IMG/VR virus record: IMGVR_UViG_3300017757_000025
Location: 1-43,938 of that record
Reading direction: 5' to 3' (one strand)
DNA from: a virus
DNA: 43,938 nucleotides
A program made the translations under genes and the position numbers. Every line of letters starts with the position of its first letter. The stretch's first letter is position 1. The notes under the pieces were generated by a model. It was not told where the DNA came from. It saw only the letters and a list, made by a program, of their open reading frames with translations, and ran no database searches. Below, one piece after another: positions 20,231 through 43,938 of this stretch.

Positions 20231-23200
20231 ATGGCTGAGAATAATTCAATACAAACAATGTTACCGGAGTTGTTAAGACTTTTTAACAATTCATTGGAGA
20301 GCTTTGAGAAAGTTAACCAAGCGATTACATCAAGCCGAGAGTCCGTTACTGTAAATATACAGAATCAAAATGGAACAAATTCTCGTGTAACTATTCCTAG
20401 TTTTGGTTTTCTTAAAAATTCAGTTGACAGGTTACAGAGTAATATCAATACTATTACTAATTTTAATGGTTCTGATAGTTCTATAAGATTACCTGATGGT
20501 ACATTTAGAAAATTGGTTTTAGCTAAGCTTCCTACTGAGGCCGCTGATTTAACTGCTATGACATCTGTTAATGAATTTAATGTAAAGCCTAATTGGTTTT
20601 TTGAAGAACTAATTAATCCATTATTATTTGTTTCATTTGATATAACAGGCCAAGCACCTATTGATACTGAAAGATGTATTGTTAAAAGATTTATATTAGA
20701 TACTAATACACAAAGTAAAACCAATTTCTTTGACTCTAGTTATAACGGGGCAGCTGATATTAATTATGATACTTTCTTACAGCAGATTGTAGAGAAAAAT
20801 ATATCTTATGTATTAGATGAAGCTGTAGTTGATTTACCACCAAGAGAATTGAGATATTCTGGAATGTTTAGTGTTACTAGAATTTCTGAAGAAAGCGTAA
20901 CTGAAACTGTAAATGGTGTAAATCAAACAACTACACAAAAGGTGTACAAATTAAATAAAATATTTTATACAGATTCTGAAGCGGATTTTGATGATACTGT
21001 TCAACTTAAAGTTGGTGATAGCTTAGAAGTAGTCTCATCTCCGATTGATACTAGATATACTGTATCTAGGATTGATAGTAGCACAAATTCTATTATTGTA
21101 AAATTACAAGAAGGTTCTAAAACTATAAGTATTGGTGCTGATGTTTTAAAAATAGGATCTTCTTTAAATGATGAATTAAATGTAGATGTTACTGTAGGTT
21201 TTGGAGAAAGGTGTGTAACTTTTATTAAGCCTATTGATCCAAATTCTAAAATACCAGCAGTTAACTGGTCTCCAGGTAGTGGTTTTTATACTAATGATTT
21301 AAATACTATTGATGCAGCTGGTAATCAACAAACATTGGCTGATTATTATCAACAGAGTGCTATTGATTTTGGAAGATATTTACTTTCATTTGCTCAAGAT
21401 AAAATACCAACAAGCAGAGAAGGTTTAATTCCTAATGCACCAACGCTTTCTGCTGATAACTTTTCTGTTTCTTTAATTAATGGGCAAGTTAGTAATTCTG
21501 ATGCTATTGTACAACTTAAAGATTTAAATAACCAGAAGAATACTAACCAGGCGCAATTAACTGAATTAGATACTGCTATATCTCAAAGTAGAACTAAAAT
21601 ACAAACTACTAATTACAGCACAGAGGTTGAAAGAGATGCAGATAAGAATGCGTTACAAGGACTTATAACTGAGAGAGCATCAACTTCTAAGTTGTATGCA
21701 TCTGTAGTAACAGAAATAGATGCATCGGCTCAAGATAATTCAATTAATAGTATAACACCTAAATATAGAGTAAGAGGATTCTGGGCTATGCCGCAAGAAA
21801 AGTCTGCTCCATCTACAGGTGTACAGGATATTGTTAAATTTAAATATCGTTATAGATATCTTTCTGCTGATGGTGCAGCTAACCCCGTAGATCAATTTAC
21901 TTTTGTAGATGGTAATGGAACAAGCCAAGGTGCTTTTTCAAACTATGCTCAAGTAGATAGTGTATTAAGACCTAGGGTTAGAAATCCACTTACAGGCTTA
22001 TATGAATGGGCTCCTATTGATGATGATAATGCCGATTCTATAAATATTAATCAATTAGATATTCCTATTAGAAAGGGGGAGCAAGTTGAAATACAAGTAA
22101 AGTCTATATCAGAAGCAGGCTGGCCATCTAATCCATTAGAGAGTGAGTGGAGTGATGCTATAAGAGTTGAATTTCCAGCAGATCTTAGTTCTGATAATGC
22201 AGTTGAATCAATATTAGCACAGAACCAAGAAGACTTGGCTAAAGTAACTTTACAAGAAGAATTAGAAGGTATTGGATTATATACTCATTTAAGTAGTTCT
22301 TTTACTGCTAATGAAACTTATTTTGCTCATTCAACACCAGTAATTGCATCTGGGTTTTTATCCGAAAACCAAACACCAATTGATTTATTTACTAAATTAA
22401 CCGAAATGCAAAATCAGCTAGATTTATTTGCTGAGATATTAAGTAATGCACAAGGTGAAATGGTAACTACATTAATTGATGACCAAGGTAATACCACGAG
22501 GTTGGCTAGAAATTCTACAACAAAGATATTTGCTGGATTCTATTCTCAAGAAGTTGATGGTTTGGATGATCCAAGAGGAGCAGTAATTACTAAAACTTAT
22601 TTTATAAACATAGGAAATAAATCTCAAACTACATTACAATTAGTTGCAAGAATTACTGGTAATAGAAAAAGAATGGTTAGGCAATCAGAAAATCCTGCTG
22701 ATGTTGCTGTTCCAGGTACTCCTAATTTAAATAATGGTACTACTATTCTTCCAGCTACTTATTCATGGTTAGATAACAGTGCTGCTAACCAAAGTAATAG
22801 TAGAGCAACATTTAGAGGGGACGATGTTGATTATAATACTATAAGAAAATATGACTTAACACCTTTACTTTTAACTAACCCTACAGTTACAAGTACTACT
22901 AGATATGGACAGACTGTTTCTTTAGCACCATATCAATCAACACAAAATAAAAATCAATTTATTTATAGTAGATTTTCTGATGTTAGCTCTGATAATAATT
23001 TTTATAGTTATGTTAATCCAGCTGGAGATTATACATTTAATTTAGATACCTTAGAAAATTTTTATACAAGAACTACCGATTCTGGTGTTGCAACTCCAAC
23101 TACTCAATTTATTTGGAGTGGTGGATTTACAGCAGGTGGCGCACCTACTACAGCAGCAGGCTTCTTTGGTGGTAGTGATGATTTGATTGAAGTTTCTATT

Positions 23201-35203: not shown

Positions 35204-35758
35204 ATGTTATTAAGCGCAAGAAATAATCAATTTAAATTTAATTTTCCTAGAAATTTTGTACCTGAAGAAGTAGCAAAAAGATATAAACCATTTCTTAATC
35301 GTATTCCAGGTGGATTAATCAAAGAACCTATTGACTTTTGGAATTATGGAATACAATCTATAAATTTACCAGGGCCTGCATTTGATCCTGTACAACAAAA
35401 TGATTTTCCAGGTAATACAAGAAACTTTAGAGCAAGCCTTCCTAAACAAGAATTGTTTGATAAAAAATTAACTGTTACAATGCAAGCATTTGATGGTTAT
35501 GTAAATTATTGGATGGCAATTGAAATGTTTGATTATTATTATAAACAAAGTGGAAGAAATCCTTTTTTACCTGAAGGTGTAGGTATCCAAATGTTAGATT
35601 CAGAAGGAACTATTTTTGTTACTATTCAATTAAAAGATATGATTATGAATAGTGTAGGTGCTTTAGATTTAAACTTTTCAAGTAATACTATTGAATTTGA
35701 AACTTTTGATATCGAGTTTACTTATAACATTTTAGATATAGCAGTTAATGTAACTTAA
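35204..35758 (+). CDS. tail-tube-fold protein (gp19/gp54-like)
   Basis: 184 aa, near the T4 gp19 tube length of 163. The C-terminal third shows the tube fold: FVTIQLKDMIMNSVGALDLN followed by SSNTIEFETFDIEFTYNILD, comparable with the T4 gp19 end (strand, GELQLDWDSNNEIQTFEVTL, strand). N-terminal part: FWNYGIQSINLPGPAF and ELFDKKLTVTMQAFDGYVNY. It may be the tail tube itself or a tube-like baseplate protein; which of the three tube-like genes here is the major tube protein cannot be settled without expression data. Confidence 0.55.
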   Translation: MLLSARNNQFKFNFPRNFVPEEVAKRYKPFLNRIPGGLIKEPIDFWNYGIQSINLPGPAFDPVQQNDFPGNTRNFRASLPKQELFDKKLTVTMQAFDGYVNYWMAIEMFDYYYKQSGRNPFLPEGVGIQMLDSEGTIFVTIQLKDMIMNSVGALDLNFSSNTIEFETFDIEFTYNILDIAVNVT

Positions 35759-35783: not shown

Positions 35784-36140
35784 ATGAAAACCTTTAAAGA
35801 TTATTTAACCGAGAATAAAGATGAAACTTTAGATATAACAAATCTATTGAATGAATCCCACGATCTTACTGAAGAACAGGAAGCTGCAATTGATGCAACG
35901 GTTGATAGAATAGTAGAGGCACAAAAAGAAGGAAAGAATTTAGAAGATTGTGTTGAAGAAATAATCAATGAAGGAATTTTAGGAAGTATATTCGGTGGAT
36001 TAACTGGATTTGCTTTAGGAAAGACAATAGGTAAAGCAGTAGCTAAAGTATTAGGTGTTACTAAAGGTGCTCTTTATGATTTATTAACCTCACGTCTTGT
36101 CGGTGCTGCATTAGGTGCAGTTCTCGGTAAGAGATTATAA
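35784..36140 (+). CDS. capsid-targeted small protein with Gly-rich membrane-active-looking C-terminus
   Basis: 118 aa. The N-terminus MKTFKDYLTE closely parallels the T4 internal-protein capsid-targeting sequence MKTYQEFIAE, cleaved by prohead protease gp21 after (L/I)-x-E. Matching sites here are LTE/N (10), LNE/S (24), IVE/A (45) and INE/G (63). Cleavage at 63 would release 55 residues, GILGSIFGGLTGFALGKTIG then KAVAKVLG, a glycine-zipper amphipathic sequence that ends RLVGAALGAVLGKRL. The first 60 residues are acidic, as in a propeptide. Likely an internal head/core protein, and perhaps a membrane-active peptide sent into the host with the DNA. The gp21-type protease is not in this window. 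Confidence 0.6.
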   Translation: MKTFKDYLTENKDETLDITNLLNESHDLTEEQEAAIDATVDRIVEAQKEGKNLEDCVEEIINEGILGSIFGGLTGFALGKTIGKAVAKVLGVTKGALYDLLTSRLVGAALGAVLGKRL

Positions 36141-36146
36141 AACACA

Positions 36147-36806
36147 ATGATTCATATAGGAATTGATTTTTCTTTAAATAGCCCAGGTGCTTGTATAGAA
36201 ACCACTGATGGCAAATATCACTTTATAACTTTTTTTAATTATGGAAATCGTATATGGGATGAAGAAGGTAGGAAAATACCTAAAGCATTTAGTGTACATA
36301 AAGAATTAATGGATGACGAAACTATTTTAGGATTCCCTTATAATAGACAAGTCACTAGTAAAGAGTTCTTACCAAGAGAAAGGCAAAAGTTAGAAGATGC
36401 TGGAAATATCAGTTCTTTAATGGTGGGTATTTTTTCTACTCTATTTGAAGGTGATACTGTAAACGTAGCATTAGAAGGTTTCTCATATGGATCAAAAGGT
36501 AATTCATTTATTGATATAATTCAATACAATACATTTTTAAGAAAAGAATTAATAGATAAGTATTCTATTGAAAATCTATCTGTCTTTCAACCATCTCATG
36601 TAAAGAAGTTAGCTGGTAAAGGAAATGCTAATAAACATTATATGGCTGAAGCATTTCAAAATGATGTCCTTAATGATAAGAACTTAAGGAGCACTAAACT
36701 TTGGAAGTGGTGTCAAGGAAAAGACTTCAGCATAAAAATTCCTAAACCAATAGATGACATCATAGATGCCTACTTCATACTTAAAGCCTTGAAGGCTAAC
36801 AACTAG
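36147..36806 (+). CDS. RuvC-like Holliday junction resolvase
   Basis: 219 aa with an RNase-H fold. Acidic residues are placed as in RuvC: Asp7 in IGIDFSL, Glu110 in VALEGFSYGSKGN (105-119), and the C-terminal pair within PIDDIIDAYF (Asp203/204 and Asp207). A basic stretch SHVKKLAGKGNANKHYM (150-166) is the expected DNA-binding/lysine part. It would resolve recombination branches before packaging. T4 uses gp49 (endonuclease VII, unrelated) for this; a RuvC type here is a functional replacement. Starts 6 bases after the capsid-targeted gene. Confidence 0.75.
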   Translation: MIHIGIDFSLNSPGACIETTDGKYHFITFFNYGNRIWDEEGRKIPKAFSVHKELMDDETILGFPYNRQVTSKEFLPRERQKLEDAGNISSLMVGIFSTLFEGDTVNVALEGFSYGSKGNSFIDIIQYNTFLRKELIDKYSIENLSVFQPSHVKKLAGKGNANKHYMAEAFQNDVLNDKNLRSTKLWKWCQGKDFSIKIPKPIDDIIDAYFILKALKANN

Positions 36807-38263: not shown

Positions 38264-39334
38264 ATGGCAACAGAAGTAATAATATCTTCTGAAATGAAAG
38301 CTCGGATTATCGATAAGGTAGTCCGAGTTCTTCATACTAACCATTCTCATCCAGAAAAAAGAAGAATATTAGAAAGCAAAGGTAGATTAAATTTTGCATG
38401 CCCGTATTGTGGTGATTCACATGATACCCCAAGAAAAAAGAGAGGTAACATTTATTGGAATGATTTATATTTTCATTGTTATAATTGTTCAGCTCATGAA
38501 AGTTTAGATACTTTTTTAAAAGATCATAATGAAAATTTTGAAGGTGATGATAGAATTAATGTTATTAATTACATTAAAGAAAACCGTAAACATTTTTCGT
38601 TAGGTGAAAATTTAGATTTTTATCTTTTTGATAAAGCAAAAGAATTAGCATTATCATTCGATGAATTAGCATTAGGGTTTAACATTTATCCAATTAACAC
38701 ATTAACTTATCAGGCATATCCTTATCTAAAGAGTAGGTTACTCCACCATAAAACTGAAAGGTTTGCTTTTGATCCAAGACGTCGAGAGTTATATGTTTTT
38801 AATCTAACACCTGAAGGAAAAATATTAGGATTTCAAACCAGAGACTTAGGTGGGAGTGGTCCTAAATATAAAACATGGAATATAGAAAGAATTTATGATA
38901 GGTTAAAATTACCATTAGAAGTTACAGAAGAAGAATTAGATAACTTAAATAAAATATCAATGTTATTTGGAATATTAACTGTTGATATGTCTCGAGACTT
39001 TTCCATTTTTGAAGGTCCTATTGATGCAATGTTTATGAATAACTCAATAGGTTTAACTGGGGTTAAAAAACAAATTATTGAATTTAATGAAATACCAACT
39101 GCAAGATATTTCTTTGATAATGATATGGAAGGTAAAACCAGAATGATTGAAAAATTAAAAAGTGGTCAGAATGTTTTTATGTGGGATAAGTTTTTAAAAG
39201 ACTTTGATATTCCTTCAAGGAAAGTAAAAGATTTAAATGATTTAGTGAAATGGGAATTTACTAATCGAAGTGGGTGCTTAAATGACCTGGATAAATATTT
39301 TACAAATAATTCATTAGATATAATTTTTATATAA
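38264..39334 (+). CDS. gp61: DNA primase, gp61-like (zinc finger plus TOPRIM)
   Basis: 356 aa (T4 gp61 is 342). N-terminal zinc ribbon: C46-P-Y-C49 and C72-Y-N-C75 (NFACPYCGDSH; FHCYNCSAHES). TOPRIM residues: Glu250 in FEGPIDAMFMNNS, and Asp285/Asp287 in FFDNDMEGK, the metal-binding D-x-D. It makes RNA primers for lagging-strand synthesis, normally with the gp41 helicase, which is not in this window. The 39-aa segment before the zinc ribbon is basic. Starts 5 bases after the gp32 stop; its stop overlaps the next gene as TAATG. Confidence 0.85.
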   Translation: MATEVIISSEMKARIIDKVVRVLHTNHSHPEKRRILESKGRLNFACPYCGDSHDTPRKKRGNIYWNDLYFHCYNCSAHESLDTFLKDHNENFEGDDRINVINYIKENRKHFSLGENLDFYLFDKAKELALSFDELALGFNIYPINTLTYQAYPYLKSRLLHHKTERFAFDPRRRELYVFNLTPEGKILGFQTRDLGGSGPKYKTWNIERIYDRLKLPLEVTEEELDNLNKISMLFGILTVDMSRDFSIFEGPIDAMFMNNSIGLTGVKKQIIEFNEIPTARYFFDNDMEGKTRMIEKLKSGQNVFMWDKFLKDFDIPSRKVKDLNDLVKWEFTNRSGCLNDLDKYFTNNSLDIIFI

Positions 39335-39552
39335 TGAGTTTGAAAAAATATAGCAATTTTGTGAATGAAGAAATAGATGACTTCTATAATGACTTAGAAG
39401 CAAGTAATAAAAAACTTAAACTTTTTACAAACTTTAATAAATCCAATCTTAAACAAGTAAAAACTAATTTTTCTATTCCAGTTCCTAAAAAGAAATTTAA
39501 GCCCAAAATAAAGAGTTATAAAAAGAGTAATAATGATAAAGGTATATTTTAA
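39334..39552 (+). CDS. small basic protein, 72 aa, unidentified
   Basis: Overlaps both neighbours by TAATG, so it is translationally coupled. The N-terminus MSLKKYSNFVNEEI resembles the phage's capsid-targeting-like starts (compare SFDKFVNEAYDK in the acidic protein at 41563). After an acidic stretch the last 40 residues are very basic (VPKKKFKPKIKSYKKSNNDK). It lies between primase and UvsY, so a replication or recombination accessory is possible, but a packaged DNA-binding peptide is equally consistent. A gp33 or gp59 assignment is not supported by sequence I can read. Confidence 0.55.
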   Translation: MSLKKYSNFVNEEIDDFYNDLEASNKKLKLFTNFNKSNLKQVKTNFSIPVPKKKFKPKIKSYKKSNNDKGIF

Positions 39553-41562: not shown

Positions 41563-43419
41563 ATGAAGTCAATCAAAAAGTTTTCTGCAATGACTGCTAC
41601 GGATCAATCGATCACAGAGTCTGCAAAAGTAAGCCAAGAAGCTGTTGAGGAATTGATCAAAAAGATTGGTTTTGACAGTATAGAAGAATTAAAGAAAGAA
41701 AAAGATCTACTTTCTAAACTCGAATCATTAGCTAAAAGTTCTGCTAAAAAAGATGACATCTCTGAAGATGAAATTGAAGAAGATAGAGCTGAAGATATCG
41801 AAGATGAAATGAAAGCCAAAGGCAAGCCAAAATCTTTAGAAGGTACTGAAGATAAAGAAGGTGATGAGGAAGTAGTTTTATCTGGTGAAGAAGAAGTAGA
41901 AGAAGATAGAGCTGAGGATATTGAAGATGAGGTATTATCTAAAGGTAAACCAAAATCTTTAGAAAAAGAAGAAGGTGATGTAGTCTCTGCTGATCAAGAA
42001 ATTACTAAAGAAGTTCCAGCTGAAGCCGATGAGGTTGAGGATGAGGACGGCGTTGAGGTTGCTTCAGAAGAAGAAGAAACTCCAAAAGCTACACGCAGAA
42101 TAATGGCTTTTGAAGATTTTATTAAAGAGAAGGAAGAAACTATCAATAAGAATATTAAATATCATGATGATGATGAAGAACCAGAAGATTACGCTGTTCC
42201 AGTAGCGGCCTCTGCTGATCCTCTTGCTGAAGCTAAAGTTAATGAAGATGATGAAGATAAAGGCGAAGAAGATGAAAAGAAAGGTGATGAGCTAGAAGAT
42301 AAAGGTGATAAGAAAGTTGATTCTGAAGATGATAAAGAAAAAGCAGACCATTATAAAGGAGCTGTTAAATCTGATGATAAACAAATCGATGCTTTAAAGA
42401 AAGATGTTAAGTATGATAAAGAAGAAGAGGAAGATGCTGAAAAGAATGAATCTGCTATTATGTCTTTTGATAAATTTGTAAATGAAGCTTATGATAAAGT
42501 AACTCTAGGTGGAAACAAAGGTGATAAATCTAAAACTCACGATGGAGAAGATTATGAAGATGAAGATGAAAAAGACGAATCTGCAAATGAAAAGTATGAC
42601 AAGGTAACTTTAGGCGGAAACAAAGGCGATAAATCTAAAACTCATGACGGTGAAGATTACGAAGATGAAGATGAGAAAGATGAATCAACAAATGAGAAGT
42701 ATGACAAAGTAACTTTAGGTGGTAATAAAGGCGATAAGTCTAAAACCAAAGAAGGTGAAGAAGATTATGAAGATGAAGATAAAACTGATGAAGCTTATGA
42801 TAAAGTAACTCTAGGTGGAAATAAAGGTGATAAATCTAAAACTCATGATGGAGAAGATTACGAAGATGAAGATGAAAAGGATGAATCTGTTGAAGAAGCT
42901 GTCGGTGAAGTAATTACTAAAGTTGAAGGTGATGAAATTAAAGCCGAAGAAACTGGTGCTGATGGTATAGCTATTCCTGTAATTAAAGGTGATGGACCAG
43001 AAACTGCTGCAGGTATCGCTGGAGATATGATGGATATGGGTAAACCTAAAAGTGTTGAAGGTAAAGGTAAAGAACTTATTTCAAAAGATCAAGTAATTAC
43101 TGATGTTGTAAAAGGTGAAGCTGATGATAAAGCAGATGGTACTGAAATAGTAAAGGAAGAAGAAGAAGTATTACCTGATGATTCAATTGCTGAAAAATTT
43201 AGAAAACTTGCTGTTAAGAAATTAGGAACCGTAAATGAAAAAGCTGAAATTAAATCTGCTGATGAATTTAAAGAATATGCAATGGCAATTCTAAAAGATG
43301 CTCACGGTGATAAATTTGACGAAGGTAAAGCAAAAGAAGTTGCTGATGGTTTAATCGATAAGTATGGAGAAGACTATGGAGCAATGGTTGGAGCTTTACA
43401 ATCTACGATGGGATCATAA
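41563..43419 (+). CDS. large acidic repeat protein, probable prohead core/scaffold protein
   Basis: 618 aa, extremely rich in Glu, Asp and Lys. It starts MKSIKKFSAMT and has ITE/S near residue 19, an (L/I)-x-E site of prohead-protease type. Internal parts repeat: DRAEDIEDE with GKPKSLE (about 72-92 and 113-133) and later GKPKSVE; two M-x-F-x-x-F starts (MAFEDFIKEKEE; MSFDKFVNEAYDK); and four copies of YDKVTLGGNKGDKSKT (42490-42888). The C-terminal 80 residues look folded (AEKFRKLAVKKLGTVNEK; DKFDEGKAKEVADGLIDKYG). T4 gp22, the major core protein, is likewise acidic and cut into peptides. I infer a core or scaffold role, with the internal starts as possible processing points. Other acidic disordered proteins would look similar. 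Confidence 0.55.
   Translation: MKSIKKFSAMTATDQSITESAKVSQEAVEELIKKIGFDSIEELKKEKDLLSKLESLAKSSAKKDDISEDEIEEDRAEDIEDEMKAKGKPKSLEGTEDKEGDEEVVLSGEEEVEEDRAEDIEDEVLSKGKPKSLEKEEGDVVSADQEITKEVPAEADEVEDEDGVEVASEEEETPKATRRIMAFEDFIKEKEETINKNIKYHDDDEEPEDYAVPVAASADPLAEAKVNEDDEDKGEEDEKKGDELEDKGDKKVDSEDDKEKADHYKGAVKSDDKQIDALKKDVKYDKEEEEDAEKNESAIMSFDKFVNEAYDKVTLGGNKGDKSKTHDGEDYEDEDEKDESANEKYDKVTLGGNKGDKSKTHDGEDYEDEDEKDESTNEKYDKVTLGGNKGDKSKTKEGEEDYEDEDKTDEAYDKVTLGGNKGDKSKTHDGEDYEDEDEKDESVEEAVGEVITKVEGDEIKAEETGADGIAIPVIKGDGPETAAGIAGDMMDMGKPKSVEGKGKELISKDQVITDVVKGEADDKADGTEIVKEEEEVLPDDSIAEKFRKLAVKKLGTVNEKAEIKSADEFKEYAMAILKDAHGDKFDEGKAKEVADGLIDKYGEDYGAMVGALQSTMGS
42490..42888 (+). repeat. four tandem repeats of about 35 codons
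   Basis: Copies begin at 42490, 42595, 42700 and 42796 (spacing 105, 105 and 96 bases), each encoding YDKVTLGGNKGDKSKT then DGEDYEDEDEKDES or a variant. Copies 1 and 4 share DNA spelling (gcttatgataaagtaactct) while 2 and 3 share another, suggesting duplication of units followed by exchange. Confidence 0.85.
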
Positions 43420-43431
43420 TTAAAACAAAAT

Positions 43432-43938
43432 ATGAAACATATAAAATTGTTTGAACAGTGGCTGGCCGATAAAAGCCAGCCATTTCTTTTTGAAGGGGGT
43501 GCTGCTGGTCATATGCAACATCCGTTTGATGATAAAGACCTGACCTTTGGTGATTTTAAAGCAATGGTTGATGCTGGTCTTAGAGGCCAATTAAACTTTG
43601 AAGAAGATCCTACTGAAAAGACTGATGGCCAAAATCTGTTTGTAACTATGCAAGATGGTAAAGTAAAATTTGCCAGAAATAAAGGACAGATGGCAAATCC
43701 TATAGATCTTAATGGTATTATAAAAATGTTTACAGGACATGCATCTAAATTAGTTGAAGATACTTATATCTTTGCAGCTAGAGATTTAGATAAATTATTA
43801 AGAAAGCTTTCTTCAGCAGATCAAGAAAAGTATTTTAAGAATGGAAAAGATTTTATGAATATGGAATTAATCTATTCATTAAATCCAAATGTTATTCATT
43901 ATGATACTGATGTTATACAATTTCATGGAATAAAAGAA
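43432..43938 (+). CDS. nucleotidyltransferase/ligase-like enzyme, 3' end beyond window
   Basis: The frame is open from the ATG at 43432 to the edge (169 residues). The core is that of an ATP-dependent ligase-type nucleotidyltransferase: motif I TEKTDGQNLF with candidate adenylated Lys63 in K-x-D-G, then VKFARNKGQM (Arg82) and later FMNMELIYSLNPNVIHYD, like motifs Ia and III. Residues 18-31 (FLFEGGAAGHMQHP) hold an L-F-E/G site. The start MKHIKLFEQWL shares its pattern with this phage's capsid-targeting-like starts. It could seal DNA or RNA ends, or adenylate another substrate; the missing C-terminal half prevents a choice. An intrinsic terminator lies inside codons 10-20. Confidence 0.7.
   Translation, partial: MKHIKLFEQWLADKSQPFLFEGGAAGHMQHPFDDKDLTFGDFKAMVDAGLRGQLNFEEDPTEKTDGQNLFVTMQDGKVKFARNKGQMANPIDLNGIIKMFTGHASKLVEDTYIFAARDLDKLLRKLSSADQEKYFKNGKDFMNMELIYSLNPNVIHYDTDVIQFHGIKE
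43459..43491 (+). terminator. intrinsic terminator inside the start of the ligase-like gene
   Basis: TGGCTGGC (43459-43466) pairs perfectly with GCCAGCCA (43475-43482) around an 8-base loop, followed by TTTCTTTTT (43483-43491). It is the only GC-rich hairpin with a T-run that I noticed in the window. It lies 40 bases past the stop of the acidic protein, as a terminator for that gene would, but within codons 10-20 of the next ORF. Confidence 0.75.

What the first reader, a model, noticed from the sequence alone, without database searches (positions are those of the whole stretch)
35784..36140. Capsid-targeted, protease-processed glycine-zipper peptide
MKTFKDYLTE nearly reproduces the T4 internal-protein capsid-targeting sequence. 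Four (L/I)-x-E sites are present, and cutting at residue 63 would free GILGSIFGGLTGFALGKTIG and following residues, which resemble amphipathic membrane-active peptides. T4 internal proteins enter the host with DNA. A membrane-active version carried in the head would be a new kind of injected effector, or a core peptide that acts inside the capsid.
Basis: partly seen in the sequence, partly recalled or inferred. Interest (0 to 1): 0.65.

Follow-up and report, generated by a model that had tools for sequence, protein, structure and literature searches.

The report
Head-targeted phage protein, probably protease-trimmed
A small gene in an uncultured T4-like phage carries almost the same ten-residue address label that sends T4's injected proteins into the virus head; its predicted cut-off point and 55-residue glycine-rich tail are nearly unchanged across very distant giant phages, so it is probably a basic but unrecognised part of what these viruses pack inside their heads.

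Summary
The ORF at 35784-36140 (118 aa) is real and widely conserved: at least 575 relatives in IMG/VR, about 150 distinct members extracted, reaching LR756500 (462 kb) and the Lak megaphages. No cellular relative was found. Its first ten residues, MKTFKDYLTE, match T4 IPII/IPIII (MKTYQEFIAE) at the positions shown experimentally to target proteins to the T4 head (4, 7) and to permit processing (8, 10). In relatives this tag is genome-wide: 27 of 278 proteins in one phage against 0.27 expected; in T4 a closely similar pattern finds only ipII and ipIII. A gp21-type (S77) prohead protease is encoded in 18 of 30 relative records tested. A propeptide of variable length (52-160 aa in complete members) always ends Glu|Gly (150 of 150), just before an almost invariant 55-residue basic glycine-zipper domain. 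Targeting is well supported and trimming is likely, but strict (L/I)-x-E at residue 63 holds in only 50 of 150 members (Thr or Val are common at P3). Membrane activity and injection remain untested. The domain is not uniformly amphipathic, and its near-invariance argues for a constant head component or entry factor rather than a variable host effector. The broader result, a T4-type capsid tag on up to ~27 proteins per phage, may matter more.

The parts
35784..36140 (+). 118-aa ORF: precursor of a head-targeted glycine-zipper protein
   Evidence: relatives
35784..35813 (+). residues 1-10, MKTFKDYLTE: capsid-targeting-like tag ending in an LTE processing site
   Evidence: T4 IPII/IPIII MKTYQEFIAE; conserved in 48/48 close homologues; tag-like motif in the first 25 residues of 130/150 family members
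35784..35972 (+). residues 1-63: acidic propeptide (net charge -13, pI 4.1) with five L/I-x-E sites (P1 = 10, 24, 30, 45, 63)
   Evidence: length varies 52-160 aa among complete relatives
35970..35975 (+). E63|G64: predicted maturation cut; Glu-Gly in 150/150 family members, preceded by Asn in 141
   Evidence: the AF2 model has a break between helices 53-63 and 65-90 here
35973..36137 (+). residues 64-118: predicted mature peptide, 55 aa, net +6, pI 10.7, no Glu; glycine zippers G67/71/75/79/83 and G107/111/115; invariant TSRL-type motif
   Evidence: helices 65-90, 96-101, 104-116
35204..35758 (+). upstream neighbour: tail-tube-like protein (weak gp19 match), directly upstream in 76 of 77 testable close relatives
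36147..36806 (+). downstream neighbour: RuvC-like resolvase, directly downstream in 77 of 77 testable close relatives

Best explanation
This is the precursor of a constant internal head protein of a large group of T4-like giant phages. The N-terminal tag takes it into the prohead core, as the T4 capsid-targeting sequence does (inferred from sequence, strongly). The phage's S77 prohead protease then cuts the acidic propeptide at several Glu sites and finally at E63|G64 (inferred, likely). This leaves a 55-residue, basic, all-helical glycine-zipper peptide in the capsid with the DNA. What the peptide does next is inferred only: my best guess is that it leaves the head with the DNA and packs, through its glycine zippers, into a helix bundle in or at the host inner membrane that helps DNA entry (about 0.35); a role that stays inside the head, against the DNA, portal or core, is about equally likely.
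For: Tag identity at positions 1-4, 7, 8, 10 in the classes used by T4 IPII/IPIII, the positions that PMC9026906 reports as targeting (4, 7) and processing (8, 10). A tight N-terminal tag pattern finds only ipII and ipIII in the T4 ORFs examined, with 0 of 871 internal Met; the same pattern finds 22/628 N-termini against 0/1763 internal Met in LR756500, and 25/278 against 2/1146 in G017 and 10/244 against 4/1136 in G016. Shuffling N-termini gives 0.27 expected against 27 seen in G017 with a related rule. Tags end [LIVT]-x-E with Asn at P2 in 39 of 58 against 7-9% background, the same x-N-E as the family junction (141/150). Propeptide length and sequence vary, but the Glu|Gly junction and the 55-60 aa domain do not. 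The propeptide averages -13 and the mature domain +5; Glu sites are dense in the first and nearly absent in the second. S77 protease in the same records, in Lak about 4 kb from the family gene. Unrelated proteins of the same genomes repeat the layout of tag or acidic leader, then x-N-E|G-hydrophobic: G001 22041 next to the capsid gene, G001 96690, G016 149872.
Against: At the junction P3 is Thr in 62, Val in 36, Met in 2 and L/I in only 50 of 150, outside the T4 gp21 rule, whereas the candidate capsid-protein site in the same phages keeps L (LNE/LYE). About a dozen members have the aromatic tag positions but no Glu at position 10, and the L200/L201 and Lak forms lack a clear tag at the N-terminus. 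No virion proteomics exist; no relative is cultured. The window itself does not contain the protease. dN/dS is no lower in the mature part than in the whole propeptide (0.135 against 0.132).
Confidence: 0.62

Rival explanations
1. The protein is a prohead core or assembly factor like T4 gp67/gp68: it is needed to build the head and works inside it, and the glycine-zipper part binds the core, portal or DNA and is never delivered to a membrane.
For: Near-invariance of the C-terminal domain over very divergent phages and a fixed place next to structural genes suit an assembly part; T4 core genes are conserved while IPs are not (PMC9026906). In Lak the gene lies about 4 kb from the protease-scaffold gene.
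Against: T4 gp67/gp68 show no sequence match (no T4 hit with the domain profile) and are acidic or Lys/Arg-rich without glycine zippers; a 55-aa hydrophobic basic remnant spared by the protease suggests a use after maturation.
Confidence: 0.33
2. A membrane-active effector in the first reader's sense: the freed peptide permeabilises or reprograms the host membrane after injection.
For: Hydrophobic, cationic, glycine-zipper helices; packaged proteins with a CTS are injected in T4 (PMC3012670, PMC12373910).
Against: Hydropathy over 19 residues peaks at 1.41, and residues 64-81 are not amphipathic. Strict conservation of a specific TSRL segment from Lak to marine phages is unlike effectors or lytic peptides. 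No glycine-zipper Pfam model reaches its cut-off.
Confidence: 0.2
3. The protein is never cut. MKTFKDYLxE is only a docking tag, Glu-Gly is a structural helix break, and the whole 118-aa protein works in the tail or head.
For: The P3 rule fails in most members; AF2 packs the propeptide helices with the C-terminal ones at moderate confidence (pLDDT 74.6, pTM 0.66); the upstream neighbour is a tail-tube-like gene.
Against: Variable-length, variable-sequence leader ending at one invariant bond; conserved Glu sites at 10, 24 and 45; the same x-N-E end on dozens of other tags in these genomes.
Confidence: 0.22
4. A holin or other small lysis or membrane protein unrelated to the head.
For: Two hydrophobic helices in a small protein.
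Against: Tag, propeptide sites, tail-gene neighbourhood and lack of any fold or family match to holins.
Confidence: 0.04

Closest known systems
T4 internal proteins IPI, IPII, IPIII (capsid-targeting sequence proteins)
   Same: N-terminal ten-residue tag with aromatic residues at 4 and 7, L/I at 8 and E at 10; basic remainder; gp21-type protease in the same phages
   Different: Long acidic propeptide with further Glu sites; hydrophobic glycine-zipper mature part; strongly conserved across distant phages, whereas IPs are variable and dispensable anti-restriction proteins
Cleaved head proteins of giant phage SPN3US and other phiKZ-like phages
   Same: Propeptides of very different length, cut at several Glu sites, released from proteins carried in the head (PMC10052503)
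   Different: A-x-E specificity, no T4-like tag, no sequence relation found here
T4 core proteins gp67 and gp68
   Same: Small proteins that enter the prohead core and are cut by gp21
   Different: No detectable sequence similarity; no glycine zipper
Glycine zipper 2TM domains (Pfam PF05433, PF13488, PF13441)
   Same: GxxxG-spaced helices
   Different: Scores well below the curated cut-offs; no sign of export or lipidation; not a member

Membership tests
T4 CTS-tagged internal head proteins | N-terminal tag with F/Y at 4 and 7, L/I at 8, E at 10 | tested here: met
   F4, Y7, L8, E10; T4 sequences read; 48/48 close homologues
T4 CTS-tagged internal head proteins | gp21-type prohead protease in the same genome | tested here: met
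   Not in the window fragment; PF03420 over cut-off in 18 of 30 relative records, including 12 of 13 in one batch of long contigs
T4 CTS-tagged internal head proteins | Cleavage at L/I-x-E | tested here: inconclusive
   Motif present at 10, 24, 30, 45, 63 in the window protein; at the junction only 50/150 family members have L/I at P3; the cut itself cannot be tested here
T4 CTS-tagged internal head proteins | Present in virions and injected with DNA | not testable with these tools
   No cultured relative or proteome available
T4 gp67/gp68 core proteins | Sequence homology to gp67 or gp68 | tested here: not met
   Domain profile finds no T4 ORF at E <= 10; sequences read
Glycine zipper 2TM / Gly-zipper Pfam families | Profile match over the curated cut-off | tested here: not met
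   PF05433 14.0 bits against 24.2; PF13488 10.6 against 25; PF13441 9.7 against 28.9
Membrane-active amphipathic peptide | Amphipathic helix along the peptide | tested here: inconclusive
   Hydrophobic moment 0.42 for 74-91 but 0.01-0.12 for 64-83 and 96-115
Membrane-active amphipathic peptide | Membrane permeabilisation | not testable with these tools
   Needs an assay

The most novel reading that the evidence does not exclude
A whole lineage of giant phages uses the T4 capsid-targeting tag as a general address for a large injected proteome (up to about 27 tagged proteins per genome), and this invariant glycine-zipper peptide is its constant member, freed in the head by the prohead protease and forming a membrane entry structure for DNA and tagged proteins.
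Probability: 0.2. Interest if true: 0.85.

Novelty: new variant of a known kind. Interest (0 to 1): 0.58.

Why it matters
If right, it names a conserved, previously unannotated head-internal protein shared by marine T4-like phages, a 462-kb phage and Lak megaphages, and gives a simple sequence rule (tag plus x-N-E end) for predicting which of the many unknown proteins of uncultured giant phages are packed in the head and delivered to the host. It would also give a test case for the open question of how long-tailed T4-like phages get DNA through the inner membrane.

Tried and rejected
Family libraries: PHROG and Pfam matches are weak and fit glycine-rich composition. Fold comparison of the AF2 model against BFVD and PDB: no match with E <= 0.001; sequence search of the PDB: nothing. 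Search of 84,980 prokaryote genomes: 60 pattern matches, no relative. GenBank phages: only LR756500 and Lak. Profile search for paralogues in G001, LR756500 and T4: none beyond the family gene itself. The count of (L/I)-x-E sites by itself was rejected as strong evidence (P = 0.03 in the propeptide, 0.08 over the whole protein). A looser tag pattern was dropped because it also matches internal segments. The idea that the mature part is under stronger dN/dS constraint than the propeptide was tested and not supported. A test for P3 covariation between this junction and the capsid-protein site found L at the capsid site throughout, so no covariation. A holin was considered and set aside.

Full report
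What is there. The ORF 35784-36140 (+) encodes 118 residues, MKTFKDYLTENKDET...EEIINEGILGSIFGG...GAALGAVLGKRL. The window is a 43.9-kb viral record with T4-type tail and baseplate genes, a GroES-like protein, gp32, and UvsY-like genes. In close relatives the gene always sits between a tail-tube-like gene (76 of 77) and a RuvC-like gene (77 of 77).

The family. A scan of IMG/VR found 166 and then at least 575 relatives; two further scans brought in more distant ones. From all loci I extracted 150 distinct proteins, falling into 18 groups at 80% identity of the C-terminal domain. The distant ends are LR756500 (a 462-kb metagenomic phage) and the Prevotella Lak megaphages, which read TAG as an amino acid. 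None of 84,980 prokaryote genomes holds a relative, so this is a phage gene.

The tag. The real T4 sequences are MKTYQEFIAE for IPII and IPIII and MKTFKEF... for IPI. The review PMC9026906 states that the first 10 residues of IPIII suffice for packaging, that residues 4 and 7 carry targeting and that residues 8 and 10 carry processing. The window protein has F4, Y7, L8, E10, and 48 of 48 close homologues keep LxE at 8-10. Across the wide family 130 of 150 have a tag-like motif in the first 25 residues; most of the others keep the two aromatic positions but lack the Glu, or have a different N-terminus. A tag with targeting residues but no processing site is tolerable if the later junction does the processing; that is inference.

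The tag is not peculiar to this gene. A strict anchored pattern finds, in the T4 ORFs examined, only ipII and ipIII, and nothing at 871 internal methionines. In LR756500 it finds 22 of 628 N-termini and 0 of 1763 internal methionines; in G017 (207 kb) 25 of 278 against 2 of 1146; in G016 (205 kb) 10 of 244 against 4 of 1136. With N-termini shuffled, a related rule expects 0.27 hits in G017 and 27 are seen. G016 even has MKTYEEFINEA and MKTYEQFTAEN. In G017 ten tagged genes stand in a row (84424-88841). In G001 (181 kb, a close relative of the window) the signal is weaker: 4 of 203 against 3 of 947. Of 20 tagged proteins scanned, most match no Pfam family; the rest include leucine-rich repeats, a DUF2201 metallopeptidase/VWA protein, a PNK3P phosphatase and a PAP2 protein.

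The cut. Of 30 relative records searched, 18 carry a Peptidase_S77 (gp21-type) protease over Pfam's cut-off, with HP and SSR motifs like those of T4 gp21. The window, a fragment, does not contain it. Leaders of 52, 63, 65, 67-71 and 158-160 residues all end at the same Glu-Gly bond (150 of 150), followed by 55-60 residues that hardly change. The leader is acidic (mean net charge -13) and rich in L/I-x-E sites (mean 4.2); the tail is basic (+5) and almost free of them. The residue before the Glu is Asn in 141 of 150, and Asn also precedes the Glu in 39 of 58 tags of other proteins, against 7-9% of all Glu residues. Unrelated proteins of the same genomes share the layout of leader, x-N-E, then G-hydrophobic (G001 22041, next to the major capsid gene; G001 96690; G016 149872). 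Against this, the T4 rule wants L or I three residues before the cut, and the junction has Thr in 62 and Val in 36 of 150 members, while the candidate capsid-protein site in these phages has L. Tags in these genomes do end in VxE and occasionally TxE, so a relaxed protease is plausible, but the cut at 63 is not proven. Propeptides removed by several Glu cuts are known in SPN3US (PMC10052503).

The mature part. Residues 64-118 have GxxxG spacing at 67/71/75/79/83 and 107/111/115, Lys at 80/84/88, no Glu, net +6. AF2 gives helices 65-90, 96-101 and 104-116 with moderate confidence and a break at residue 64. No fold match exists in BFVD or PDB. Hydropathy is below the usual transmembrane threshold and only part is amphipathic. 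The most conserved stretch (LLTSRLVGxALGA) is too specific for a generic membrane-lytic peptide. T4 IPs each inhibit one restriction system and are variable (PMC12373910, PMC9026906); this domain is the opposite, nearly constant. I therefore favour a constant virion function: helix packing in the head or, slightly preferred as a guess, in the inner membrane during DNA entry.

Confidence by step. Targeted to the head 0.85; leader cut somewhere 0.8; cut at E63|G64 0.65; leaves the head at infection 0.5; acts at a membrane 0.35.

Noticed in passing
L444-L454 (G017, IMGVR_UViG_3300027733_000028) 84424-88841 and 168648-175350 of the contig: Clusters of consecutive genes that all start with a CTS-like tag (MK..INTFEGFLNE and similar); 25-27 tagged proteins in one genome, mostly without any Pfam match: a probable head-packaged accessory proteome.
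   Followed up: partly
L104-L123, L206-L211 (LR756500): 22 proteins begin MKYIKEYEEFLxE or similar, among them leucine-rich repeat proteins, a DUF2201 metallopeptidase/VWA protein and a PNK3P phosphatase.
   Followed up: partly
L099 6690-7259 (G001 96690-97259) and G016 149872: A second family with the same layout: tag-like start, about 36-38 residue leader ending LNE, then G(L/I)F.(F/W)IKG(I/L)F(I/L)NP and a basic remainder.
   Followed up: partly
L095 4041-5111 (G001 22041-23111): Lys-rich 356-aa protein next to the major capsid gene, starting MAKLKTYSEFLNE|GIMDVLKS: candidate internal or core protein.
   Followed up: no
window 41563-43419: Very acidic 618-aa repetitive protein (net charge -105) with internal tag-like segments FEDFIKE and FDKFVNE; possible prohead core or scaffold protein.
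   Followed up: partly
window 43432-43938: Truncated ORF starting MKHIKLFEQWL with FLFE|GGAAGHMQHPF; in LR756500 the equivalent is MKFLKSYEEFLNENLILE|GGSYGHLNHPF, so a tagged and perhaps cut protein.
   Followed up: no
L082 15380-16231 (LR756500, next to the family gene): 283-aa protein with an acidic leader, LEE|GIGTIAKK junction and a basic, partly hydrophobic remainder; same layout as the family.
   Followed up: no
L083 6572-7822 (Lak-A2, next to the family gene, opposite strand): 416-aa protein with an acidic leader, LNE|LFGFGSS junction and a hydrophobic segment, weakly similar to tape-measure families.
   Followed up: partly
window 39334-39552: 72-aa basic protein starting MSLKKYSNFVNEE between the primase-like gene and the UvsY-like gene; tag-like start, but the position suggests it may instead be a replication or late-transcription factor.
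   Followed up: no
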